A stretch of DNA of 64,000 bases from Peptoclostridium acidaminophilum DSM 3953. GTDB lineage: Bacteria; Bacillota; Clostridia; Peptostreptococcales; Peptostreptococcaceae. Shown piece by piece: positions 1,157 through 13,381 of this stretch. Location of the stretch: NCBI RefSeq assembly GCF_000597865.1, contig NZ_CP007452.1, forward strand, positions 2,053,183 to 2,117,182, written 5' to 3'. A program made the translations under genes and the position numbers. The number at the start of each line of letters is the position of its first letter. The stretch's first letter is position 1. A model generated the notes under the pieces. That model searched no databases. It was not told where the DNA came from and worked only from the letters and a program-made list of their open reading frames with translations.

Positions 1157-2402
1157 GACCGTAAGCGTTATATCAAAGAATTTCTACAAGGTGAATCCTG
1201 ATTCCATAGACGAGTACATAGCCGCAGGGGGCTTTGAGGGCCTTAAAAAGGCTATAACAATGAAGCCCGAGGAGATTATAGAGCTGCTCAACAAGTCTGA
1301 CCTTCAGGGAAGGGGCGGAGCCGCGTTTTCAGTTGCCACTAAGTGGAACCACGCAGTCAGGGTGAGCGCGCCTGTAAAGGGCATAATGTGCAACGCCGAC
1401 GAGGGCGAGCCTGGAACCTTCAAGGACAGGTCTCTGCTTGAGCACAATCCTTTCGGAGTAATAGAAGGCATGATAATAGGCGCCTACGTGGGCGGCGGCT
1501 CGCAGATGAACCACGCCAGGATATATATAAGGGAAGAATACACCTACCTTCACGGCAGGGTCAGAAACGCCATTAAACAGGCCGAGGAAAGAGGCTTCCT
1601 TGGCAATGACATACTCGGAACAGGCCTCAACATCGAGATGAAGGTCGTATCGGGCGCCGGCGCATACGTGTGCGGCGAGAGCTCTGCTCTGCTTGAGTCT
1701 ACAGAGGGCAAGGCGGGAAGGCCAAGGATAAAGCCGCCTAGACTTAACAATGTCGGACTCTACAACCTCCCCACTCTGCTCAACAACGTGGAGTCATACA
1801 GCATAGTCCCTATACTAGTAAGGGACGACAGCGAGTACAGAAGCTACGGCACTGAAAAGAGCATAGGCACTAAGATGATAAGCGTCTCGGGCAATGTCAA
1901 AAAGCCCGGGGTTTATGAGATACCATTTGGAATAACTATAAGGGAAGTCGTGTACGACATAGCCGGAGGACTCAGCTCCGAGAGGCCGCTCAAGTTCGTT
2001 CAGATAGGTGGGGCTTCGGGCGCAATAGTGCCTGCAAGCCAGCTTGACACTCCGATATCCTATGAAGGCCTTTGCGAGATAGGCGTTGCAGTGGGCTCGG
2101 GCGCAGTTGTTGTAGCTGACGATTCGAACTCAATGCTCGACTACTTCGATTCACTGGCGCATTTCTTCGCCGAGGAGTCATGCGGCAAGTGCACGCCTTG
2201 CAGGGAGGGCAACAGACAGCTCGTCAAGATTGTAGGGCTTATGAAATCTGGCAAGGCCACAGCCGCTGATTTTGACAGGCTCGTTGATATGCTTGGTCTC
2301 ATGAAGGGCGCATCGTTTTGCGGCCTTGGAAAGACTGAACCTGCTCCGTTCCTTGCTGCTATAAAGCACTTCGAAGACGAGGTAAGAGGCTACTTTAAAT
2401 AG
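1149..2402 (+). CDS. hymB: NuoF-like NAD(P)H-binding FMN/[4Fe-4S] subunit (HymB)
   Basis: 417 aa, the size of a core NuoF, shorter than the roughly 590-residue HydB/HymB proteins that carry an extra N-terminal thioredoxin domain and a C-terminal 2[4Fe-4S] ferredoxin domain. Visible motifs are the glycine-rich nucleotide/FMN site GRGGAAF, the GEPGTFKDR block, and the [4Fe-4S] ligands Cys345, Cys348, Cys351 and Cys391 (CGKCTPC...FCGLG). It oxidises or reduces NAD(P)(H) and hands electrons to HymA and a NuoG-like partner. It overlaps hymA, and a 14-bp-stem hairpin follows at 2501-2537, so the operon ends here. The partner is probably FdhA/FdhB encoded 3.3 kb downstream. Confidence 0.92.
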   Translation: MSKTVSVISKNFYKVNPDSIDEYIAAGGFEGLKKAITMKPEEIIELLNKSDLQGRGGAAFSVATKWNHAVRVSAPVKGIMCNADEGEPGTFKDRSLLEHNPFGVIEGMIIGAYVGGGSQMNHARIYIREEYTYLHGRVRNAIKQAEERGFLGNDILGTGLNIEMKVVSGAGAYVCGESSALLESTEGKAGRPRIKPPRLNNVGLYNLPTLLNNVESYSIVPILVRDDSEYRSYGTEKSIGTKMISVSGNVKKPGVYEIPFGITIREVVYDIAGGLSSERPLKFVQIGGASGAIVPASQLDTPISYEGLCEIGVAVGSGAVVVADDSNSMLDYFDSLAHFFAEESCGKCTPCREGNRQLVKIVGLMKSGKATAADFDRLVDMLGLMKGASFCGLGKTEPAPFLAAIKHFEDEVRGYFK

Positions 2403-2500
2403 CTGAATACTCCCGCTGCGCCGGGAGATTCAATATATACAATATATAATGGAAGTCATCATCCATTAAGCATCATTTGAAATCAAAATATTTTGAACTC

Positions 2501-2541
2501 ACAAAACCCCCGGACTCTTGGATTCCGGGGGTTTTGTCTTT
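2501..2541 (+). terminator. Terminator after hymB
   Basis: A perfect 14-bp stem (2501-2514 with 2524-2537, ACAAAACCCCCGGA and its complement) with a 9-nt loop, followed by a short T-run. It lies between convergent hymB and the symporter gene and probably serves both strands. Confidence 0.8.
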
Positions 2542-2590
2542 TGGGGTCTTTTATATTTAAATTTTGAGGGTTTGGTTTTGGCCTTTAAAA

Positions 2591-3985
2591 TTATGCGATG
2601 GCCTTTTTCTTTTCTTTTTCCTTCATTTCCAATTCATCGAAGTATTGCTTCGTTTCTGCTACTATTATACCGCTAAGGCCTATTATTGCTATCAGGTTTG
2701 GTATTGCCATAAGGCCGTTAACTATGTCTGCTATTGTCCATATAAGGTTAAGCTTGAGGAATGGTCCTACTGCCACAAGCGCTATGAATATATATTTGTA
2801 AGTCTTTATTCCTTTTACGCCGAAAAGATATTCAGTACATCTTTCGCCGTAGTAGTTCCAGCCAAGTATTGTTGTGAATGCGAAAAATATAAGACCTATT
2901 GTAACTATCAGCTCGCCCAGCATTGGAACCGCACCGAATCCTGATCTGAACGCCGCAGTAGTAGCAGCCGCTCCTTCAAGCGCCGGGTCATTCCACACGC
3001 CAGTTATTACAAGCGAAATTCCTGTCATTGTGCATATTATTATTGTGTCGAAGAATGTTCCTGTCATCTGAACAAGACCTTGTCTTACGCATGATCTTGT
3101 CTTTGCAGCTGCTGCCGCTATAGGCGCAGAGCCAAGACCCGACTCATTCGAGAATACTCCCCTTGAAACTCCACTCTTTAGAGCTATCATGATTGTAGCT
3201 CCTGCAAAACCGCCTGCTGCGGCATGTCCTGTGAATGCGCTTTTTACTATAAGGGCTACAGTCGCTGGAAGCTGAGCTGCATTAAGCACAAGTATTACTA
3301 TAACTCCGACTATATAGAACGCAGCCATGAAAGGCACTATAAGCTCAGAAACCTTAGATATGCTCTTTATTCCTCCGAGTGTAACAGCCGCAGTAGCTAC
3401 TGTAAGCACTATGCCAGTTACGATCACCGGAATCTTGAACGATATCTCAACTGCTGAGGTTATCGAGTTAACCTGCGCAAATGTTCCTATTCCAAAGAAC
3501 GCAACGCCAATGCCGAATACGGCAAAGCATCTTGCAAGGAACTTGTTGTTAAGTCCTCTTTCTATGTAATACATAGGTCCGCCGGACATTTGTCCGTTTT
3601 CGTCGGTAACCCTATACTTGACGGCAAGCAGCGCCTCAGCGTACTTTGTCGCCATGCCAAATAGTGCGGCCATCCACATCCAGAAAAGAGCTCCCGGACC
3701 TCCAAGCCTTATTGCCGTTGCAACACCAACGATGTTGCCTGTACCTATTGTTGCTGAAAGAGCCGTACAAACCGCTCCGAACGCCGAAACGTCGCCGTCT
3801 ACTTTCAAGTCCTTTGCTTCCGGATCTTCAGTGAAAAGATACTTAAGAGCCAGAGGAAGCTTTGTTACCTGAAGAAAGCCCAGCCTGATTGTCAGGTATA
3901 TACCCGTTCCCATAAGGAGTATCAGCAGCGGCGGGCCCCAGAGGAATGTGTTTACCGCTTGAAAAAACTGACTTACTTGTTCCAT
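2591..3985 (-). CDS. Sodium:alanine/glycine symporter (AGCS family)
   Basis: 464 aa polytopic membrane protein of the AGCS (alanine or glycine:cation symporter) family. Family motifs visible include GTGNIVGVATAI, GGPGALFWMWMAALFGMATKY, SGGPMYYIERG and SGVSRGVFSNESGLGSAPIAAA. It imports glycine or alanine with Na+. I chose the ATG at 3985 because AGGAGGT sits 9 nt upstream; a longer reading from 4039 adds 18 residues without an RBS. Transcription starts from a consensus promoter at 4372-4400 and runs through a tandem glycine riboswitch, so expression should respond to glycine. The gene is opposite in strand to the fdh and hym genes around it. Confidence 0.95.
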   Translation of the reverse strand: MEQVSQFFQAVNTFLWGPPLLILLMGTGIYLTIRLGFLQVTKLPLALKYLFTEDPEAKDLKVDGDVSAFGAVCTALSATIGTGNIVGVATAIRLGGPGALFWMWMAALFGMATKYAEALLAVKYRVTDENGQMSGGPMYYIERGLNNKFLARCFAVFGIGVAFFGIGTFAQVNSITSAVEISFKIPVIVTGIVLTVATAAVTLGGIKSISKVSELIVPFMAAFYIVGVIVILVLNAAQLPATVALIVKSAFTGHAAAGGFAGATIMIALKSGVSRGVFSNESGLGSAPIAAAAAKTRSCVRQGLVQMTGTFFDTIIICTMTGISLVITGVWNDPALEGAAATTAAFRSGFGAVPMLGELIVTIGLIFFAFTTILGWNYYGERCTEYLFGVKGIKTYKYIFIALVAVGPFLKLNLIWTIADIVNGLMAIPNLIAIIGLSGIIVAETKQYFDELEMKEKEKKKAIA

Positions 3986-4099
3986 TTTGTTTACCTCCTG
4001 CTTTTTTTGAAATTTTTTAAAACAAAAAAGCAGAGACAATCTGATATACGGGAAGAATAATAAAAAAAATGATAGCTCTTTGGCATATTCCCATACTCA

Positions 4100-4340
4100 A
4101 ATTCCCCTGTCCTTTTACCTGAGAGATTCGCCGTTTTCATATTGCATACATCATCCATAATACATTATACGGCACATTTTATGCAGTATATAATGTACAT
4201 GGTCCGGTATACATACACGCGCGGCTTGCTCCTTCGGTGCTCTGTCGAGTCTCTCCAGAGGTTTGTCCAACAGCGGTCCTAAGACCTGAAAGCTTCACTT
4301 CTTCGGTGCCCAATAGGGGCTCTCCCGCCGTCTTCATCCA
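4100..4340 (-). promoter_or_regulatory. Tandem glycine riboswitch of the symporter gene
   Basis: On the minus strand two glycine aptamers occur in series. The first runs from GGCGGGAGAG through GGCACCGAAGAAGTGAAG and CTTTCAGG to AGGAC and CTCTGGAGAG. The second has GCACCGAAGGAGCAA and then ATCTCTCAGGTAAAAGGAC. These are the conserved cores of the glycine riboswitch class. The second aptamer has an enlarged variable arm (about 4140-4210). It ends about 115 nt upstream of the symporter start. Direction of control (normally ON with glycine) is inferred from the class. Confidence 0.95.
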
Positions 4341-4371: not shown

Positions 4372-4400
4372 ATTATAGTATAGAAATAATCGATTGTCAA
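4372..4400 (-). promoter_or_regulatory. Consensus promoter upstream of the symporter riboswitch
   Basis: TTGACA (complement of 4395-4400) and TATAAT (complement of 4372-4377) are separated by exactly 17 nt, a perfect housekeeping sigma promoter. Initiation would fall near 4365, about 25 nt before the first aptamer. Confidence 0.88.
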
Positions 4401-4790
4401 CAAAGTAACAACTTGTTTTTGAATGGGAACAATTACAATCAGGCTTGTTCGTCGCAACAATGAAGCTGTTGATTTTGGCGGGTTTATAAATTGTGCGTTT
4501 ATGCAAACAATTCACACAGTTCAAGAATTCGCAAAAATATTTTTCTGCGCCGTGATTTTCCAGGATGTAAAATGACTATTTATGAACGTTTTTGAGGTTT
4601 TATTCTGGGCGTGTGCTTCCGGATGTCTTTTTCGTTATAATTTTATCAAATTAAATTGCGCACTATTCAGTTTTTTGAGACTTGCATGCTTTGCAATTAC
4701 CTTGTTTTAAAAATTCCAAATATTCAGACACAGTATGCAGCGTCTAAACATCCCGACAAGGGTGGATTGTGTCTTTTGTCCTCCTGTCCC

Positions 4791-4820
4791 AAAAAAATAA
4801 AAAAAACCGCCTGAGCAGTT
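4791..4820 (-). terminator. Intrinsic terminator after the upstream glycine riboswitch
   Basis: On the minus strand AACTGC-TCAG-GCGGTT forms a 6-bp stem-loop (4805-4820) followed by T8, A, T7. It lies 25 nt beyond the last conserved aptamer bases and is the probable expression platform of the upstream riboswitch. No open reading frame with an RBS follows before the next promoter at 4400. Confidence 0.75.
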
Positions 4821-4844
4821 TGTATGTTTTAAGGAAAAATTCAG

Positions 4845-5050
4845 TTCTCTGTCCTTTTACCTGAGAGATTCATTTAATCGCTTGATCTAAAAAAGGGATG
4901 AGCTTTTTTATTTATATAAAGATCTCAATTAAATTTGCTCCTTCGGTGCCTTATATGGTCTCTCCAGAGTATCGTCTTGATGACAGTCCTAAGCCTGAAA
5001 GCTTTACTTCTTCGGCGCCCCTCATGGGTCTCTCCTGCCACCTTCATCCG
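4845..5050 (-). promoter_or_regulatory. Second (upstream) tandem glycine riboswitch
   Basis: A second complete two-aptamer glycine riboswitch on the minus strand. The first aptamer has GGCAGGAGAGACC, GGCGCCGAAGAAGTAAAG, CTTTCAGG and CTCTGGAGAG; the second has GGCACCGAAGGAGCAAA and then ATCTCTCAGGTAAAAGGACAG. It has its own promoter (5107-5135) and terminator (4791-4820) but no coding region directly behind it; the next gene on this strand is the symporter, already preceded by its own riboswitch. Confidence 0.93.
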
Positions 5051-5106
5051 ATAATAAGATATTGGCAAATAATTATGGATACGCAGTACCGCACTGCGCA
5101 ATTGTT

Positions 5107-5135
5107 ATTATATATCGTCACATATATAAAGTCAA
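5107..5135 (-). promoter_or_regulatory. Promoter of the upstream glycine riboswitch
   Basis: TTGACT (complement of 5130-5135) and TATAAT (complement of 5107-5112) are 17 nt apart. Initiation near 5100 would give about 50 nt of leader before the first aptamer. The remaining stretch 5136-5690 to the fdhB-like start is AT-rich with no supported gene. Confidence 0.85.
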
Positions 5136-5704
5136 CCGTATTTTTGATTTTAGTCGACCGGTACTGCCACATGTCTCTTTTATTTTTGTGTGTTGATATT
5201 TTCATTGGTGAAATTTCTATCATTTCTTTCACGTTTTACATCTATCCCCATATGTGAATAGTTTCCCCGTGCACGTGCATAATATTGCACCCAACTCCAG
5301 TCCCCGCTTTTTGCGACAGCTTCCCAGGCTAAATATCAGCTTAAGTCCATCATTTTTCGCAACCAGCAGAACGGCTTTAATTAGAATAAATATTTAACAT
5401 TTTTTCATTCTTTATCCGGGCCCAAATGCCCTTTTTTGCATATATATACTTATTTTATGCTTTTTCATCGCTTCTGTTTGCCCGTTTTACAGCGGTTGGA
5501 TATTATTGCAGTCTAGACAAATCCTTGGATTATTGTTATTATTTTATTACTTAAAACATTGTTATAAATTTATTCTATTTTGCATAAACACAATTATTTA
5601 TGCTTTTTTAAAAAAACAATTTATTCGGGTCAAATTGGTGGACGCTCTTCCCAATCCACTAATCCATACATTTAATTCATACATTATATAAGGAGGAACA
5701 TTAA

Positions 5705-6658
5705 ATGGTAACACTTACAATTAACGGGCAGAGCGTTTCCGTGTCGCGGAAAAGCACGATAATAGAAGCTGCCGCAAAGCTTGGTATTGAAATCCCCGCT
5801 CTCTGCTACGACGAGAACCTCGAGCCCGTAGGCGCTTGCAGGCTTTGCGTTGTAGATGTGCAGGGCGCAAGAGGCCTTTTGACTGCCTGCTCGACTCCGG
5901 TTGCCGAGGGAATGGTAGTTGAAACAGAGACCGAAAGGGTTATAGACGCTAGAAGAGGTGTTCTTCGCCTTCTGCTTGATAACCATCCGAACGATTGCCT
6001 CACTTGCGAAAAAGCCGGTTCTTGTCTTCTTCAAAAATATTCTTACAAGTATGATGTGAAATTCGACGCTTCTGCAAAAGGTGCAAGGAGAGCCGGACTT
6101 CTAGACGATTCCAACCCTTATATAATGAGAGACGACAGCAAGTGCATACTTTGCGGAAAATGTGTCAGGATATGCGGACAAGTTTCAGAAAGAAGCGTGC
6201 TTGCTTTTTCAGGAAGAGGCTTCGACACTAAGGTTGTTTTCGACGGAGACGCTTCAATAGCCGAATCAAAATGTGTTTCATGCCTAAGATGCGTATCCGT
6301 ATGCCCTACCGGAGCTCTTATAGACGCAAGAGCCACAGGAAGCTACAGACCTTGGGAAGTCCAAACTGTTGCTGTTAAATGCAAGCAGTGCGACAGCGGA
6401 TGCGACTTTGACCTTCTAAAAAGAAACGGCGAAACGGTTGCCATCAAGCCGCAGCCACCTACAAGCGGAAGACCTCTTTGCCTCAAGGGCAGACTTGCGA
6501 CAGAGCTTGAATACATAAGCTCAGACAAGCTCAAATCTCCTCAGATAAAGGAAAACGGTTCCTTCAAAATATGCAGATGGTCTGAGGCCCTGGGACTCGA
6601 CAACACGCTTTCAAAGATAATTGATTTTGAAAATAAAGCAGGCGAAAGCGGAAAATAA
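5705..6658 (+). CDS. NuoG/FdhA N-terminal-like iron-sulfur subunit (FdhB-like)
   Basis: 317 aa cytoplasmic electron-transfer protein that copies the first part of FdhA next door. It has a [2Fe-2S] ferredoxin domain with Cys34, Cys45, Cys48 and Cys62; a His94/Cys98/Cys101/Cys107 [4Fe-4S] site; two CxxCxxCxxxC clusters (KCILCGKCVRIC and KCVSCLRCVSVC); and the fifth, molybdopterin-domain type cluster start (CKQCDSGC). The protein stops about 45 residues after that, so no catalytic molybdopterin domain is present. RBS AAGGAGG lies 8 nt before the ATG. It probably wires FdhA to HymAB. It could be named fdhB, but that symbol is used for other folds elsewhere, so I leave it blank. Confidence 0.88.
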   Translation: MVTLTINGQSVSVSRKSTIIEAAAKLGIEIPALCYDENLEPVGACRLCVVDVQGARGLLTACSTPVAEGMVVETETERVIDARRGVLRLLLDNHPNDCLTCEKAGSCLLQKYSYKYDVKFDASAKGARRAGLLDDSNPYIMRDDSKCILCGKCVRICGQVSERSVLAFSGRGFDTKVVFDGDASIAESKCVSCLRCVSVCPTGALIDARATGSYRPWEVQTVAVKCKQCDSGCDFDLLKRNGETVAIKPQPPTSGRPLCLKGRLATELEYISSDKLKSPQIKENGSFKICRWSEALGLDNTLSKIIDFENKAGESGK

Positions 6659-6772
6659 TCAGTCTTATTCCGGTCCTGGCGGGACAGTCAGGATGCCTGT
6701 TCATCTGCTGCCCTGCTGATAATATTCAAGCCATGCATGAGTGCATGCTGTTAATAGGAGGTTTATCCGAAT

Positions 6773-9466
6773 ATGATAAATGTGACAATAAACGGCACGA
6801 CGGTGAGCGTGCCCAGGAAGTCCACACTGCTTGAGGCATGCAACGCTGCAGGCGTAAGCATCCCTACATTCTGCCACGACGAAAGACTACAGGCGCACGC
6901 GGCCTGCAGGATATGTGTTGTAGAAGTCGCGGGAGCCAGAGGCCTCATGACTGCATGCTCGACTCCGGCGGTAGACGGAATGGACGTACAGACTCACAGC
7001 GAAAGAGTAATCGAAGCAAGAAGAGGCGTTCTAAGCCTGATGATAGCAAACCACCCTCTTGACTGCCTTACATGCGTAAAATCCGGAGACTGCAGACTTC
7101 AGGACTACTGCTACGAGTACGGCGTCAAAGAGCCTGAATTCGAAGGTGCAAAGAAGAATTATGAAATAGACGATTCGAATCCTTTCTATATAAGCGACCA
7201 GAACAAGTGCATAAGCTGCGGAAGATGCGTAAGGGTATGCAACGAGCTTCAGTGCACTGGCGCAATAGACCTGGCTGAAAGGGGTTTTGACACACACGTG
7301 GCAACTCCTTTTGATGTGGATCTTGAAAAGTCCAAATGCGTATCCTGCGGAAACTGCGTTGCCGTTTGCCCTGTCGGAGCCTTGATGCCAAAGAGCAAGG
7401 AGCTCTTCAGGCAATGGGAGACTAAAAAGGTAAGAACTACATGCTCATATTGCGGCGTAGGCTGCCAGATGGATCTTGTAGTAAAAGGCGACACTGTGGT
7501 AGGCGCAGAGCCAGCCAACGGACCTGCCAACGAGGGACTTTTGTGCGTCAAGGGAAGATTCGGCTACAAGTTCCTTAGCCACCCGGACAGGCTCACAAAG
7601 CCTCTTATAAGAAAGAACGGGGAGCTTGTGGAGTCTTCCTGGGACGAGGCATACAGCCTTGTTGCAAAGAAGATGAAGCAGACAAAGGAAGAATTCGGAG
7701 CTGATTCGCTAGTTGGGCTTACATCTGCAAGATGTACAAATGAGGAAAACTACCTCATGCAAAAGCTTTTCAGAGCCGTAATAGGCACTAACAACATCGA
7801 TCACTGCGCACGCCTCTGACACTCCTCAACGGTTGCAGGTCTTGCAGCCACACTGGGAAGCGGAGCGATGACAAACAGCATAACTGAAGTCAAGGATTCA
7901 GACGCGATATTCGTAATAGGCTCCAACACTACAGAAAACCACCCTGTAATAGGCGCAATGATGAAACAGGCGGTTAAGAAGGGCGCAAAGCTGATAGTTG
8001 CCGAGCCAAGAAGGATAGAGCTTGCCGACTACGCTGACGTTTTCCTTCAGATAAAGCCTGGAACAAACGTAGCGCTTCTAAACGGCATGATGAAAGCCAT
8101 AGTAGACGAGGACCTTCATGACAAGGAATATATAGAAGAAAGAACAGAGGACTTCGACAAGCTAAAAGAACTTCTCGGCAGACATACTGTTGAAGAATAC
8201 GCAGCTATATGCGGCGTAGATGCAGAGGATGTAAGGAAAGCGGCCAGAATATACGCAGAGGCCGACAAAGCCGGAATATACTACGCAATGGGCATAACTC
8301 AGCACAGCGACGGAACAAACCACGTCAAGTCGGTTTCAAACCTTGCTCTGCTTTGCGGAAACCTAGGAAAGGAATCTGCCGGAGTCAACCCTCTAAGAGG
8401 ACAAAACAACGTGCAGGGAGCCTGCGACATGGGCGGACTTCCAAACTCGTTCCCCGGCTACCTGAGCGTCACTTCTCCAGAAATTCGCGAGAAATTCGAG
8501 AAGGCCTGGGACGCCAAGCTCTCTGGCAACGTGGGACTCACCATACCTAAGATGCTAAGCGGAATAGACAGCGGCGATGTAAGGCTTATGTATATAATGG
8601 GCGAGAACCCTATGGTTTCAGACCCGGACCTTACTCACGTCGAAAAATCTCTAAGGAAAGTGGACTTCCTCGTAGTTCAGGACATATTCCTCACAGAGAC
8701 TGCACTGCTTGCTGACGTTGTGCTTCCTGCAGCCGCCTTTGCAGAAAAAGACGGAACCTTCTCAAATACAGAAAGAAGAGTCCAGATGGTAAGAAAGGCT
8801 GTGAATCCTCCGGGGGAAGCCAAGGCCGACTGGAAGATATTCATGGACCTTATGAACAAGCTTGGATATTCCAACTACTACAGAAATACAAGCGAGATAA
8901 TGGATGAGATAGCATCAGTTACCCCTCAGTACGGCGGCATAAGCTACGACAGGCTTGAAGAAAAAGGAAGCCTGCAGTGGCCTTGCCCGACAAAGGAGCA
9001 CGAGGGCACGAAATTCCTGCACAAGGGCCAATTCGCAAGAGGCAAGGGACTTTTCACAGCCGTAGAGTACAAAGGACCTGCAGAGATTACAGACGAGGAG
9101 TACCCTCTGATACTTACAACAGGAAGGGTTCTATACCACTACCACACAATGACAATGACAGGCAAGGTAGAGGGCCTCATGCAGAAATCCCCGGAAAGCT
9201 TCATAGAGCTTTCGCCAAATGCAGCTGAAAACCTTGGCGTTGCTGACGGCGAAATGGTGAAGGTATCATCAAGAAGGGGCACAATAAATGTAAAAGCCGC
9301 AGTCAAGGATATACTAGCTGACAACGTGGTGTTCATGCCTTTCCACTTTGCTGTGGGAGCGGCCAACATGCTTACAAACACAGCTCTGGATCCGACCTGC
9401 AACATACCTGAATTCAAGGTCTGCGCAGTGAAGGTTGAAAAAATAGCCACAGAAAAGACAGCTTAA
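6773..9466 (+). CDS. fdhA: Selenocysteine-containing formate dehydrogenase catalytic subunit
   Basis: Reads as one 897-residue protein if the in-frame TGA at 7817-7819 is decoded as selenocysteine 349. The context DHCARL-Sec-HSSTVAGLA matches the active site of FdhF/FdhA enzymes, and a SECIS-like hairpin follows directly. Domains: [2Fe-2S] (Cys34/45/48/62), His94-Cys98/101/107 cluster, two [4Fe-4S] clusters (Cys146-156, Cys189-199), the CSYCGVGC cluster at 224-231, then molybdopterin oxidoreductase and the C-terminal dinucleotide-binding domain. The metal is molybdenum or tungsten bis-pterin. It oxidises formate or reduces CO2. Start ATG follows AATAGGAGGTTTATCCGAAT. Automated calling would split it at 7819; it is not a pseudogene. 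Confidence 0.95.
7817..7860 (+). promoter_or_regulatory. Sec codon and SECIS hairpin of fdhA
   Basis: The UGA at 7817-7819 is followed 11 nt later by a 7-bp stem, GGTTGCA (7831-7837) with TGCAGCC (7843-7849), closing a GGTCT loop. The loop and upper stem closely match the E. coli fdhF SECIS element (GGUUGCAGGUCUGCACC), the site bound by SelB. Confidence 0.9.
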
Positions 9467-9540
9467 AGGCTCAAAGAGATCAAGGCTGCAATCCAGATGT
9501 TCCGCATCAAAAAAAATTATTTAAAAGGAGTTATCAATTT

Positions 9541-10401
9541 ATGAACAAGAATTATCTGACACCGGCTGAAATAGCCGAGGCGACCATCAACACAGGTATT
9601 GCAAAATGCTGCAGACCATTTATTCCAACACTGCTGCTTGCAATACTGGCAGGAGCTTTCATAGCTTTTGCATCGGAAGGTTCAAACATGGCGGCATTCA
9701 ACCTTTTCGCAAAGCCTGAAACTTACGGCTTGGGAAAAGTGCTTGCAGGATCAATATTCGGAACCGGTCTTATGCTTGTTGTTGTGGCCGGCGGAGAGCT
9801 CTTCACTGGTAACACTATGATAATCCTCGGCGTTGCAGACAAAAAGACTGCAATCATAGACATGCTTAAAAACTGGGGAATCGTATATTTAGGAAACTTC
9901 ATAGGCTCAGTATTTATTGCCTACATGATGGTTCAATCTGGACTTTTCAACAGCGGAGCCAACGTGCTTGGCGGCGTGACAATCAAAATAGCGGCTTACA
10001 AAACATCGCTTCCTTTCATGTCGGCTTTTTATCTTGGAATCATGTGTAACTGGCTAGTATGTCTTGCGGTATGGATGGCATACGGCGCTAAGGATATGGT
10101 GGGAAAGCTGTTTGCAATATTCTTCCCGATATGGCTGTTCATAACTTCAGGCTTCGAGCACAGCGTTGCAAACATGTACTATATTCCAGCCGGAATAATG
10201 GCAAAAGCCAACCCGGACTGGGCAGCGGCTTCTCACCTCGAACCAGCCAAGCTTGAAGCGCTTAACTGGTCAAGCTTCTTCATAAACAACCTTGTACCAG
10301 TTACACTAGGCAACATAGTAGGCGGCGCAGGAATGGTTGCTCTTGTTTACTACTTCTCTTTCATAAAGCCAGCAAGAGAGGCCGAGAAGAAGGCGGCTTA
10401 G
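9541..10401 (+). CDS. fdhC: Formate/nitrite transporter family channel
   Basis: 286 aa, six predicted membrane helices, FNT family (FocA/FdhC). The family signature is seen in LVVVAGGELFTGNTM and in the repeat-related segments FLGIMCNWLVCLAVWMAYG and GFEHSVANMYYIP. It should move formate across the cytoplasmic membrane. The ATG at 9541 has AAAAGGAG 11 nt upstream and lies 74 nt after fdhA, and no terminator was seen in that gap, so it is probably cotranscribed. A strong terminator follows at 10434-10492. The name fdhC rests on its position in the fdh operon; nitrite transport cannot be excluded from sequence alone. Confidence 0.92.
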   Translation: MNKNYLTPAEIAEATINTGIAKCCRPFIPTLLLAILAGAFIAFASEGSNMAAFNLFAKPETYGLGKVLAGSIFGTGLMLVVVAGGELFTGNTMIILGVADKKTAIIDMLKNWGIVYLGNFIGSVFIAYMMVQSGLFNSGANVLGGVTIKIAAYKTSLPFMSAFYLGIMCNWLVCLAVWMAYGAKDMVGKLFAIFFPIWLFITSGFEHSVANMYYIPAGIMAKANPDWAAASHLEPAKLEALNWSSFFINNLVPVTLGNIVGGAGMVALVYYFSFIKPAREAEKKAA

Positions 10402-10433
10402 CAGCATAAAAAGCACGAATTTAACAACTTACA

Positions 10434-10492
10434 AAAGAGAGAGGGACGGTTCTTCTGGCTGCTTGCGCCAAAAGAACCGTCCCTCTCTCTTT
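10434..10492. terminator. 21-bp hairpin between fdhC and the SLH gene
   Basis: Perfect inverted repeat, arms 10434-10454 and 10472-10492 (core GAGAGGGACGGTTCTT), with a 17-nt loop. It sits between two convergent genes, 7 nt before the SLH stop codon, and can terminate both. Confidence 0.8.
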
Positions 10493-10498
10493 GCCGAC

Positions 10499-13381
10499 CT
10501 ACTGGTTGTCATCTACCCATATTGAATATATCTCGTCAGTATATCTGTTGTACGAGAACTTGACAGCTGTGCCTGTCCTTGCTAGACTTTCAAACAGCTC
10601 AACAGGGTCTACCCCCTCGTCCTCTATTTCCATGTAGCCGTCTCGGAATACAAAGTCAATGTCCTCGGCGCATGCAAACGACCTCTCATTGCCGTCTAAC
10701 TCTATTAAAAGGCACTCCCTTGAAGTTGGGTCCACGCTTACGAGAACGCCCTGGGCGATTTTGGAGTCCGTTTGAGCGCCTAGGTCTTCAAATGCCACAA
10801 TCTTTCCATCCTCGATGTAGGCTGCAATTATGTCTCCACTGTCAAGGCCCTGTGGGCTGATGCTCCTGCCGCCTCCGAAGCCCACGGCATCGTCGCCTAT
10901 CCTGTACCTTGTCCCTTCGATGGATATGTAGCGATTGTCTGCAGATGTCACTTCACCCGATACAAACTCCATATCCTCCGCCTCGACTATGTTTATCTTG
11001 TCAGAGGAGCCTATCTGGTATGCTATGAGTCTTCCAAAAAGCATCAGATCCTTGTACTCGTCTTCAAGCTTGTAGCTTTTGACTCCCTCGGAGCCGTATT
11101 CCTGGAGCTCGACGTATCTGTAGTCCCCAAGGCTGAAGTTGTCCAGGACGTAGCCCACCTTGGTGTCCTCCTTGATACCCTCTATGTTGCTCCAGATGGC
11201 CATCATGAGCAGATAGTCGCCGTCCGTATCGGCTATTACCTCCACGTCGCCAACGACCTGTCTGCCTTTGAATTTGTCCCAGTTAAGACGCTTTACCTGG
11301 TCGGGATCCTGCTCCGAGTAGTCGAAGAACACCGTGTCAGAATCCACCTTATATGTCTGGCCGCCTATTTCAACGGAATCCTCGGTGAAATCATCGCCGG
11401 AGCTTATTATGCTAATGTCATCCGTGTATATTATGTTTTCGGTGAAGTCGTCGCTGAGATTCTTTATGGTGCCCGTGTTTATCTGGGAGTACTTCACTAT
11501 AGTACCGACATCCACTCTGGCTTTGAGGTATTCGTATTCGTCGGAATCCTCGAAGGCAAACACCCGCTTGGAGCCTGTCTGGGTCAGGAGCTTTATTTCA
11601 CCCCGCACCGCGTCTCCGTAATCCAGCAGCACGCCGTACTGGTCAATCACAAGGCTGAAGTTGCCTTCTACGTAAACCACGTCACCCGCATGATTCCCAT
11701 ATATTTTGACCTTTTGGTTATAGAATTCATTCAGACTGGACGCTATTGAAGAGATGCTTTCAGACCCGGCTCTTACCCTTTTCCCTCCATTGTAAGAGTA
11801 TGCAAAGCTTTCTGCAAGCTGGTATGAATCAGGAATGCCCTTTAGCCTGAAGGTTATGCTTTTGCCGTTTGCGCCTCCCGACACCCTCTCGAATGTGCCT
11901 TCCGAATTGTTCCTGAACACGTAGACAGGCTTTGAGTTAGCGCTCTCGTTCTCGCTCCCTATCCTTATGACGTCGCCAATCTGAAGGGCCCCGAAATCCG
12001 CCTTCTGCACGCCGCTTTCCAAGACCACGTAAAAATCATAGGCCGTCTTGCCGTTTTTTAAAATCAATCTGTCTTCTACTCCGCCCTCTGTGTCAATGCC
12101 GGATACGCTGCTTCCTTGGGCGTCCAGACTTTTTATTACAAAATCCCCGGAGTCCCATGATACCAGATTGGCGTACTCCAGCCTGTCCTTTTTCACGACG
12201 AAGCTGCCCCAGGCATCCTCCCCCAGAACGCTTTCATAATCATCGGGATCTACAGTCTCGCCGTCAAGCATGACTATAGAGTCTGAATCCACGTCGATAT
12301 AGCCCTCCTCGCCCTTAAGCCTTATCATGCCGTATGGCTTCTCAGCGTACGCGTTTTCAACCTCATTCATGCCTGCTGACAGGGCCGGGTTGCCTGAGCC
12401 GGAGGAACTGGCCCTGGATACGTAAAGTATGTTTTCATCCTTGTCTACGTAAAATTCCACCGTCTCCCCGGGCTGTATGTATATGCCCTCCGGATTCGTG
12501 AATATTTGCTTTTCGCCGCTTTTTAATGCGCCGCCTTCAATCTCCGAATCGCTTGTTATCTCAAACTCCATGCTCTGCGCATCCAGGTAGCTCATGGACC
12601 TTATAAGCCTTGCGCCCCTTATCTGGTATATGCCCCTCTTTTCCGTCATAAGCATTCTGCCCTCGTTCTGGCCGAAGAGGTATTTTCCGTGAAGGGCGTT
12701 TTTGACCATGAGAGCCGCATCTCCCCGGCCGAGAGATGCTGAGTGCTCGCCTTCCGCTCCCGAGAGTATCCCCAACTCTGCGGCCTTGGATATGTAGTTG
12801 GCGGGCCAGCTGCCCTGCACATAGGAGTCATTGTAGCCAAAGCATCTTACAAGCATGGCCGCCGCCTGGGCTCTTGTGACGCTCTCGGCGGGCCTGAAGC
12901 TTCCATCCTCGAAGCCTCTCGTCATCCCCATGCTTACTGCCATGCTCACATAGTGATGCGACCACCTGTCCCTTTCAACGTCTGTGAATATTTGCTCACC
13001 CTTCGAAAGCAGAGCCGCATTTTCGAGTCCCAGCACGCCTACAAGCAGCTTTGCAAACTCCTCCCTTGTTATGCCCTGCTCCGGGTGGAATTTGCCGTCC
13101 TCCTTTCCGTTTGCAAGGCCAAGCCCCATGAGAAAATCAGCGGCCTCCTGAGCCTTTGCGCTCACGGCATAAACCGTCTCTTTATTAGCCGGTTCTTCCT
13201 GCACTGCCTCTTCCTGGGCCGCAGCCTCCTTAGGCTCATCCAAGGCTGCCTCTTTCTGCTCCGCAGCCGTCTTAGGCGTTTCCGGCGCAGCTTCCTGGCC
13301 GTATGACACCTGACCAAAAGTCAGGGCTGTTGTCAATAAGGAGCAAATGGCTGCTCGCTTAATTCTGCTGTTAAGTCTCAC
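10499..13381 (-). CDS. SLH-domain cell-wall-anchored protein
   Basis: 960 aa secreted protein starting at GTG 13381 (GGAGGTC 7 nt upstream). Residues 1-28 form a signal peptide ending near SYGQEAA, followed by an Ala/Glu-rich linker. Three SLH repeats lie at about 80-250: HPEQGITREEFAKLLVGVLG, FRPAESVTRAQAAAMLVRCFG, and a weaker WPANYISKAAELGI unit. SLH repeats bind pyruvylated secondary cell-wall polymers. The remaining 700 residues are acidic and beta-rich with repeated short units (for example YxLEDEYKDLMLFGRLIAY and GxRYRIGDDAVGFGGG) also recognisable in the S-layer protein at 22889-26011, so the two are distant paralogues. Function of the C-terminal part is unknown. Confidence 0.88.
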   Translation of the reverse strand: MRLNSRIKRAAICSLLTTALTFGQVSYGQEAAPETPKTAAEQKEAALDEPKEAAAQEEAVQEEPANKETVYAVSAKAQEAADFLMGLGLANGKEDGKFHPEQGITREEFAKLLVGVLGLENAALLSKGEQIFTDVERDRWSHHYVSMAVSMGMTRGFEDGSFRPAESVTRAQAAAMLVRCFGYNDSYVQGSWPANYISKAAELGILSGAEGEHSASLGRGDAALMVKNALHGKYLFGQNEGRMLMTEKRGIYQIRGARLIRSMSYLDAQSMEFEITSDSEIEGGALKSGEKQIFTNPEGIYIQPGETVEFYVDKDENILYVSRASSSGSGNPALSAGMNEVENAYAEKPYGMIRLKGEEGYIDVDSDSIVMLDGETVDPDDYESVLGEDAWGSFVVKKDRLEYANLVSWDSGDFVIKSLDAQGSSVSGIDTEGGVEDRLILKNGKTAYDFYVVLESGVQKADFGALQIGDVIRIGSENESANSKPVYVFRNNSEGTFERVSGGANGKSITFRLKGIPDSYQLAESFAYSYNGGKRVRAGSESISSIASSLNEFYNQKVKIYGNHAGDVVYVEGNFSLVIDQYGVLLDYGDAVRGEIKLLTQTGSKRVFAFEDSDEYEYLKARVDVGTIVKYSQINTGTIKNLSDDFTENIIYTDDISIISSGDDFTEDSVEIGGQTYKVDSDTVFFDYSEQDPDQVKRLNWDKFKGRQVVGDVEVIADTDGDYLLMMAIWSNIEGIKEDTKVGYVLDNFSLGDYRYVELQEYGSEGVKSYKLEDEYKDLMLFGRLIAYQIGSSDKINIVEAEDMEFVSGEVTSADNRYISIEGTRYRIGDDAVGFGGGRSISPQGLDSGDIIAAYIEDGKIVAFEDLGAQTDSKIAQGVLVSVDPTSRECLLIELDGNERSFACAEDIDFVFRDGYMEIEDEGVDPVELFESLARTGTAVKFSYNRYTDEIYSIWVDDNQ

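What the first reader, a model, noticed from the sequence alone, without database searches (positions are those of the whole stretch)
4372..5135. Two complete tandem glycine riboswitches in series, the upstream one with its own promoter and terminator but no gene
Four glycine aptamers precede one symporter gene. The distal pair has a TTGACT-17-TATAAT promoter and ends in a T-tailed hairpin at 4791-4820; 390 nt of non-coding sequence and a perfect TTGACA-17-TATAAT promoter follow before the second pair. Either it is an orphan riboswitch left after gene loss, a glycine-controlled small RNA, or a two-stage control in which readthrough adds to transcription of the symporter.
Basis: partly seen in the sequence, partly recalled or inferred. 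Interest (0 to 1): 0.62.

Follow-up and report, generated by a model that had tools for sequence, protein, structure and literature searches.

The report
Extra glycine riboswitch without a gene
Upstream of a bacterial glycine/alanine transporter gene sits a second, complete glycine-sensing RNA element with its own start and stop signals but no gene, and it has been kept nearly unchanged in a related species, so it probably does a job of its own.

Summary
On the minus strand, four glycine aptamers above the Rfam cut-off form two pairs (5047-4839 and 4337-4097), each with its own strong promoter. The distal pair ends at an intrinsic terminator (4821-4804) with no gene; the proximal pair serves an AGCS (Na+:alanine/glycine) symporter (3985-2591).

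The only other genome held of this genus (Peptoclostridium) has the same layout. Its distal block is 94% identical, against 76% for the spacer and 68% at fourfold codon sites, so the unit is maintained, not decaying.

By folding, the proximal switch is an ON-type attenuator. The distal terminator is predicted to form whether or not aptamer helix P1 forms. In the sister genome a 29-bp hairpin also lies between the two units. Readthrough into the symporter is therefore a poor explanation; a freestanding glycine-binding RNA is favoured, but no target is established.

Serial gene-less glycine modules also occur at the glycine reductase operon (three genomes) and at another symporter (one genome). 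A 2022 review already lists 16 "quadruplet" glycine arrangements, but excluded gaps over 300 nt; here the gap is 501 nt. New variant of a known kind.

The parts
5107..5135 (-). distal promoter, TTGACT-17-TATAAT
   Evidence: 11 of 12; hexamers identical in L044
5080..5100 (-). 5'-terminal hairpin of the predicted distal RNA (start site inferred from the promoter)
   Evidence: -11.1 kcal/mol in the window and -11.9 in L044; two one-sided pair-keeping changes and one inserted base between them (by eye)
4974..5047 (-). distal glycine aptamer 1
   Evidence: RF00504 49.0 bits, cut-off 32; not listed on its own
4839..4977 (-). distal glycine aptamer 2, with an extended P3b
   Evidence: RF00504 58.8 bits
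4804..4821 (-). distal intrinsic terminator (stem AAACUGC/GCGGUUU, then U8)
   Evidence: stem conserved in L044
4401..4795 (-). spacer without a recognised gene, 301 of 395 aligned positions identical to L044; L044 has 82 extra columns, most of them a palindrome
4372..4400 (-). proximal promoter, TTGACA-17-TATAAT
   Evidence: 12 of 12; hexamers identical in L044
4264..4337 (-). proximal glycine aptamer 1
   Evidence: RF00504 49.6 bits
4097..4268 (-). proximal glycine aptamer 2
   Evidence: RF00504 55.6 bits; 47.2 as a partial match
4024..4112 (-). proximal ON-type terminator that contains the P1 3' strand (CAGGGG with UCUCUG, then U6)
2591..3985 (-). AGCS family sodium:alanine/glycine symporter gene
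   Evidence: PF01235 473 bits; TIGR00835 517.1 bits

Best explanation
The distal pair is a maintained, gene-less transcription unit. RNA polymerase starts near 5100, makes an RNA of about 300 nt with a 5' hairpin and a complete tandem glycine aptamer, and stops at the terminator near 4800 largely regardless of glycine. The RNA most likely works by itself as a glycine-sensing RNA: glycine binding forms P1 and frees the conserved stretch CUGAAUUUUUCCUU, which in the folds without P1 pairs with the 3' part of the aptamer (in a register that differs between folds). The proximal pair is a separate ON-type attenuator that lets glycine switch on the symporter from its own promoter. Shown by sequence: aptamers, promoter and terminator motifs, conservation. 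Predicted by folding: no coupling in the distal unit, ON-type coupling in the proximal one. Inferred without direct evidence: transcription start, glycine binding, action in trans.
For: Distal block identical to L044 at 318 of 337 aligned positions, against 301 of 395 in the spacer, 74 of 155 upstream of the promoter and 165 of 241 fourfold sites of the symporter; binomial test against the fourfold rate 8.5e-32, against the spacer rate 2.7e-19. Distal aptamer cores are 99% identical between the two genomes over 147 columns, proximal ones 95% over 152. The distal terminator forms with mean probability 0.91 free and 0.95 with P1 forced; a second measure gives 0.78 and 0.80 in the window, 0.75 and 0.80 in L044. 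Of 26 platforms compared, 15 have P1-5' coupling of -9.0 or lower and 7 others P1-3' coupling of -7.5 or lower; the distal unit has neither in either genome (-2.5; -4.9 and -5.7) (the limits were set after seeing the values). In G001 a 29-bp, -58.3 kcal/mol hairpin with A5/T5 ends lies between the distal terminator and the proximal promoter, yet the distal unit is intact.
Against: Only two genomes carry the unit, so selection is judged from one comparison. No established target: matches to the freed stretch with up to 3 mismatches number 17 in G000 and 13 in G001 (one self match each) against 12 and 5 for the reversed control. I read 10 of the 28 other contexts; three sites are conserved in both genomes, one of them at the start of a short frame behind an AAGGAG (L225, L226), a weak lead not followed. 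The full RNA is not more stable than shuffles (z -0.67, 22 of 100 fold as well). A weak pairing after P1 with the terminator's 3' strand exists (-4.9, -5.7), and thermodynamic folding can miss kinetic switching. Two other platforms, L048 and L049, also show neither coupling. Serial modules elsewhere in the family look coupled.
Confidence: 0.42

Rival explanations
1. Stacked control in cis: the distal unit is a second glycine-gated promoter module whose readthrough adds to, or sharpens, transcription of the symporter (the pseudo-cooperative 'quadruplet' of the 2022 review).
For: It lies directly upstream on the same strand. Serial promoter-riboswitch modules occur at the grd operon in three genomes, where I read a terminator overlapping the ghost P1 in 7 of 9 modules from the folds (the automatic scan found one in 4 of 9), and at another symporter in G079, where the distal unit has OFF-type coupling of -13.4. 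Quadruplet glycine arrangements are in print.
Against: The distal terminator is not predicted to respond to P1. The sister genome has a 29-bp hairpin in between. The gap is 501 nt and the proximal promoter is a perfect consensus.
Confidence: 0.33
2. Relic: the distal riboswitch belonged to a lost gene (for instance a duplicate symporter) and is now without function.
For: G070 has two adjacent symporters, 93.7% identical at DNA level over 1371 bases, each with a tandem glycine riboswitch and, by eye, a promoter; losing the first gene would leave this layout. An uncoupled terminator would fit a fusion to the lost gene's terminator.
Against: Strong conservation of promoter, aptamers, 17 of 17 bases before the terminator, and the terminator stem. 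No symporter hit in the window spacer. The tree gives the distal pair supported company only from its L044 counterpart.
Confidence: 0.13
3. The distal unit acts through the act of transcription or as an insulator (for example limiting transcription from upstream into the symporter), with glycine binding incidental.
For: Strong promoter and terminator; the sequence beyond the distal promoter differs between the two genomes while the unit stays.
Against: The aptamers (77 of 79 and 125 of 135) are about as conserved as the promoter (27 of 29) and terminator (23 of 26), which this does not need.
Confidence: 0.12

Closest known systems
Quadruplet glycine aptamer arrangements (two tandem glycine riboswitches in one leader; PMC9481103, section 22 read in full)
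   Same: Two complete tandem glycine riboswitches in series before one gene
   Different: Here the units are 501 nt apart, each has its own promoter, and the distal terminator is not predicted to be coupled. The review discarded gaps over 300 nt (passage); its list of examples was not available to me.
Triplets of type-1 glycine singlets (same review section)
   Same: Resembles the grd leader modules found here: singlet plus ghost, repeated three times, mostly with a terminator
   Different: The modules here also have a promoter each; not the unit in question
Glycine riboswitch of an AGCS symporter gene in Streptococcus pyogenes (PMC5829553, passages seen)
   Same: Glycine riboswitch with two aptamers ahead of an AGCS-family symporter
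   Different: That one is repressed by glycine; the proximal switch here is predicted ON, and there is a second unit
Riboswitch-derived trans-acting RNAs (Listeria SreA and Rli55, Enterococcus EutX; recalled, not looked up)
   Same: Metabolite aptamer in a short terminated transcript
   Different: No target or effector is known here

Membership tests
Glycine riboswitch aptamer (RF00504) | Covariance-model score at or above the gathering score | tested here: met
   Four of four aptamers, 49.0-58.8 bits against 32; in the window scan three of four
Glycine riboswitch aptamer (RF00504) | Binds glycine | not testable with these tools
   Needs in-line probing; both aptamer 1 sequences are among the 30 of alignment A1 and share its invariant columns
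Glycine riboswitch (complete) | Expression platform coupled to P1, proximal unit | tested here: met
   ON-type by prediction: the terminator stem uses the P1 3' strand
Glycine riboswitch (complete) | Expression platform coupled to P1, distal unit | tested here: not met
   No change of terminator probability, weak P1 complementarity in both genomes; a prediction only
Quadruplet / pseudo-cooperative tandem glycine riboswitches | Two riboswitches in series before one gene with no gene between | tested here: met
Quadruplet / pseudo-cooperative tandem glycine riboswitches | Gap of at most 300 nt (the review's own filter) | tested here: not met
   501 nt between 4839 and 4337
Quadruplet / pseudo-cooperative tandem glycine riboswitches | Both checkpoints on one transcript | not testable with these tools
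   Needs transcript mapping; a promoter lies between the units
Riboswitch-derived trans-acting small RNA | Own promoter and terminator | tested here: met
   Sequence motifs, conserved; use in the cell not shown
Riboswitch-derived trans-acting small RNA | Base-pairing or protein target | tested here: inconclusive
   17 and 13 pattern matches against 12 and 5 in the control; one weak conserved lead; proteins not tested

The most novel reading that the evidence does not exclude
The distal unit is a glycine-activated small RNA: a full tandem riboswitch aptamer turned into a freestanding regulator, in which glycine binding frees an anti-Shine-Dalgarno-like stretch (UUUUUCCUU) that is otherwise held by the aptamer's own 3' part, and which acts on other genes of a glycine-fermenting bacterium.
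Probability: 0.25. Interest if true: 0.75.

Novelty: new variant of a known kind. Interest (0 to 1): 0.45.

Why it matters
Riboswitches are normally read as the leader of the next gene. A complete, separately promoted and conserved glycine riboswitch whose terminator does not seem to switch, and whose readthrough would be blocked in the sister species, gives a concrete case in which a riboswitch may be the product itself. Serial gene-less glycine modules at three kinds of locus in one family, some beyond the 300-nt filter of the published survey, suggest that such layouts are under-counted. It also gives a testable contrast of ON-type symporter control in glycine fermenters against the OFF type reported elsewhere.

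Tried and rejected
Symporter remnant in the spacer: no hit in the window spacer. A peptide from the distal RNA or the antisense frame: broken in L044. Local duplication of the proximal pair as origin: the tree puts the distal pair apart, nearest by path to the proximal pair but without support, so origin is unsettled. Trans target by complementarity to the freed stretch: not established. Naming the replicon through the plasmid collection: no match, but records of the window's own genome may be left out there. Terminator gating by forced folding on 42 symporter platforms: uninformative for many, because P1 was located wrongly (0-2 pairs, among them the proximal pair of window and L044) and because OFF-type coupling found later hardly showed there (for example L153: 0.96 free, 1.00 forced); replaced by duplex tests on 26 of the 42, picked by hand. 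In one search the modes 'P1 forbidden' and 'terminator forbidden' were implemented wrongly and are not used; and the fall of the proximal terminator to 0.00 under forced P1 follows by construction, since both use the same bases.

Literature: in the listings of searches (15 of 241, 3 of 3, 15 of 209, 12 of 16, 15 of 109 and 1 of 1 papers shown) I recognised no paper on a gene-less or separately promoted glycine riboswitch unit. Subscription papers and supplements were not available.

Full report
WHERE IT IS. The window is part of a 3.06 Mb genome in two contigs. The nearest named relative by symporter sequence is a Peptoclostridium MAG, isolate AA_UR_SE bin6 (L044, 95% identity); its contig length equals that of G001:C5, the other genome of the genus (82,345 bases). 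From memory the two-replicon layout fits P. acidaminophilum, a glycine fermenter; no call named the genome.

THE OBSERVATION. All parts lie on the minus strand. RF00504 finds four aptamers above its cut-off in the whole-genome search; the window scan alone lists three. The gene is an AGCS symporter by Pfam and NCBIfam. The short frames in and over the region are mostly broken in L044; one 42-aa plus-strand frame in the spacer stays open there at 60% identity.

CONSERVATION. G001 has the same four aptamers in the same order (61.1 and 49.0 bits distal, 55.6 and 48.3 proximal). Between window and L044 the distal block 5135-4796 is identical at 318 of 337 aligned positions, with 3 gap columns on either side. 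The spacer is identical at 301 of 395, with 82 gap columns; the sequence just upstream at 74 of 155; fourfold sites of the symporter at 165 of 241. The proximal aptamers are at 68 of 73 and 142 of 160, the proximal platform at 109 of 115. The 17 bases between distal aptamer 2 and the terminator are all identical. I read this as purifying selection on a unit, not decay; it rests on one pair of genomes.

HOW THE TWO PLATFORMS DIFFER. In the proximal unit the 3' strand of P1 (CAGGGG) is part of a long terminator stem that runs into U6. Without constraint this base of the stem has mean probability 0.89; forcing P1 takes it to 0.00, which follows by construction because both use the same bases. In L044 a G-U pair of this stem is G-C, and the inner stem keeps pairing (by eye). 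That is the ON type. In the distal unit the terminator is a local 7-bp hairpin with mean probability 0.91 free and 0.95 with P1 forced (0.78 and 0.80 by the measure, 0.75 and 0.80 in L044). I then tested both kinds of coupling by duplex energy on 26 platforms picked by hand from the 42. Fifteen reach -9.0 or lower for the P1 5' strand against the platform (OFF type; L116 and L154 also reach -14.4 and -9.1 for the 3' strand). Seven others reach -7.5 or lower for the P1 3' strand (ON type: the proximal unit of window and L044, L148, L149, L151, L152, L206). Four have neither: the distal unit in both genomes, L048 and L049. The limits were set after seeing the values. In the folds without P1, the conserved stretch after the aptamer pairs with the aptamer's own 3' part, in two slightly different registers; with P1 forced it is free.

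WHAT STANDS BETWEEN. In L044 a perfect 29-bp palindrome (-58.3 kcal/mol), its ends A5 and T5, starts 53 nt after the start of the distal terminator and before the proximal promoter. Similar elements are few: 6 strand matches in G000 and 10 in G001 with up to 2 mismatches, control 0 in both. I infer that it should stop readthrough in that genome, yet the distal unit is intact. Beyond the distal promoter the two genomes differ: the window has formate dehydrogenase-like genes, while L044 goes on, after a 160-aa frame, to sequence matching window 10501-13000.

TRANS TARGETS. The complement of the freed stretch (18 bases, up to 3 mismatches) has 17 matches in G000 and 13 in G001, one self match each; the reversed pattern has 12 and 5. 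I read 10 of the 28 other contexts. Three sites are conserved in both genomes (L223/L224, L225/L226, L228/L229); L225/L226 lies at the start of a short frame behind AAGGAG, with 3 mismatches. This is a weak lead, not a target.

HOW COMMON IS THE LAYOUT. Of 80 named symporter loci (up to 6 kb upstream, less in 6 loci), 77 have at least one aptamer hit at E 0.05 (none in L045, L063, L064), and 1 of 80 (L044) has hits more than 150 nt apart; in L049 two hits are 102 nt apart. The model used misses distal aptamer 1 even in the window and L044, so weak aptamers elsewhere may be missed. Of 30 symporter loci of the family with about 1.5 kb flanks (one cut short), 2 of 30 (window, G001) have separated units. 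Whole-genome listings of RF00504 cover 67 of 71 family genomes: G000, G001 (11 of its 15 matches shown), 9, 27, 29; G073, G075, G076 and G089 were not listed. Serial same-strand units within 1.5 kb with no evident gene between them occur in 4 of these 67: G000 and G001 (symporter and grd), G019 (grd) and G079 (an AGCS paralog 39% identical to this one). For the gaps I listed ORFs in the window, L009 and L233, not in L138 and L139; at grd mechanical frames of up to 89 aa overlap the modules.

THE OTHER SERIAL LOCI. At grd, three singlet modules precede grdX (NF038093; tblastn in L138 and L139) in G000, G001 and G019. Each of the nine has a promoter of the form TTGAAA, TTGAAT or TTGATT, 16-17 nt, TATAAT and a ghost P1 CUCUG..CAGAG. 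From the folds I read a terminator containing that CAGAG (in one case only its CAG) in 7 of 9, not in the middle module of G000 and G001; the automatic scan found a terminator in 4 of 9. In a class-level search 34 of 291 genomes had grdX; of the 29 other loci fetched, 23 had an aptamer hit and 0 a separated series within 1.5 kb. In G079 two units precede the paralogous symporter, 627 nt apart with no frame of 60 aa or more between them, with promoters TTTACA-17-TATAAT and TTGACA-18-TATAAT; the distal one has strong OFF-type coupling (-13.4), the proximal one -6.7. So serial gene-less modules seem to have arisen more than once, and there stacking in cis is the natural reading. The unit in question stands out by its uncoupled terminator.

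WHAT IS KNOWN. The 2022 review of tandem riboswitches (PMC9481103; sections 11, 17 and 22 read in full, other passages seen) reports 16 quadruplet and 2 triplet glycine arrangements and predicts pseudo-cooperative control. It discarded gaps over 300 nt as often indicating an unannotated ORF, and mentions promoters before and between an adenine riboswitch and a T box. A 2025 survey (PMC12452182, passages) found glycine riboswitches enriched as adjacent aptamers. The AGCS glycine riboswitches of Vibrio cholerae and S. pyogenes are described as OFF switches (PMC11477304 and PMC5829553, passages), unlike the prediction for the proximal switch here.

VERDICT. Observation confirmed. A known kind (double tandem glycine riboswitch) in a new variant: separated, separately promoted, conserved, with a distal unit that seems to end by itself. 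A freestanding RNA is favoured (0.42), stacking in cis next (0.33). Without transcript data neither is settled.

Noticed in passing
L009 3074-3922 (-), L138 2623-3463 (+), L139 995-2194 (-): Three promoter-plus-singlet glycine riboswitch modules in series before grdX of the glycine reductase operon, in two Peptoclostridium genomes and G019; 7 of 9 read as having a terminator overlapping the ghost P1.
   Followed up: partly
L233 (G079:C1) 1865-2692 (-): A second double layout: two promoter-driven glycine riboswitches 627 nt apart, no ORF of 60 aa or more between them, before a paralogous AGCS symporter.
   Followed up: partly
window 4024-4112 and relatives L148, L149, L151, L152, L206: Symporter glycine riboswitches of these family members look ON-type by P1 3' strand coupling, against OFF type in 15 of the 26 platforms compared.
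   Followed up: partly
L206 (G070:C1:2844326-2847698): Tandem duplication of riboswitch and symporter, genes 93.7% identical, both open.
   Followed up: yes
L044 5140-5202 and window 10437-10489: REP-like palindromes GACAGRGGGACGGTTCTYRTG; in G001 two copies bracket the distal riboswitch unit.
   Followed up: partly
window 6773-9466 (+): Molybdopterin oxidoreductase (formate dehydrogenase-like) gene with one in-frame TGA at 7817-7819, probably selenocysteine.
   Followed up: partly
window 5143-10430: The block with the formate dehydrogenase-like genes is absent next to the riboswitches in G001, where the distal promoter lies within 1 kb of sequence matching window 10501-13000.
   Followed up: no
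L009 4176-5402 (+): A tandem glycine riboswitch divergent from grd is followed by a D12-class adenine DNA methyltransferase gene (PF02086), an unexpected neighbour.
   Followed up: no
L225 and L226: A site complementary to the freed stretch of the distal RNA (3 mismatches) lies at the start of a short frame in both Peptoclostridium genomes.
   Followed up: no
L045: The Acidaminobacter symporter relative (81% identity) shows no glycine aptamer hit in its 6 kb upstream.
   Followed up: no
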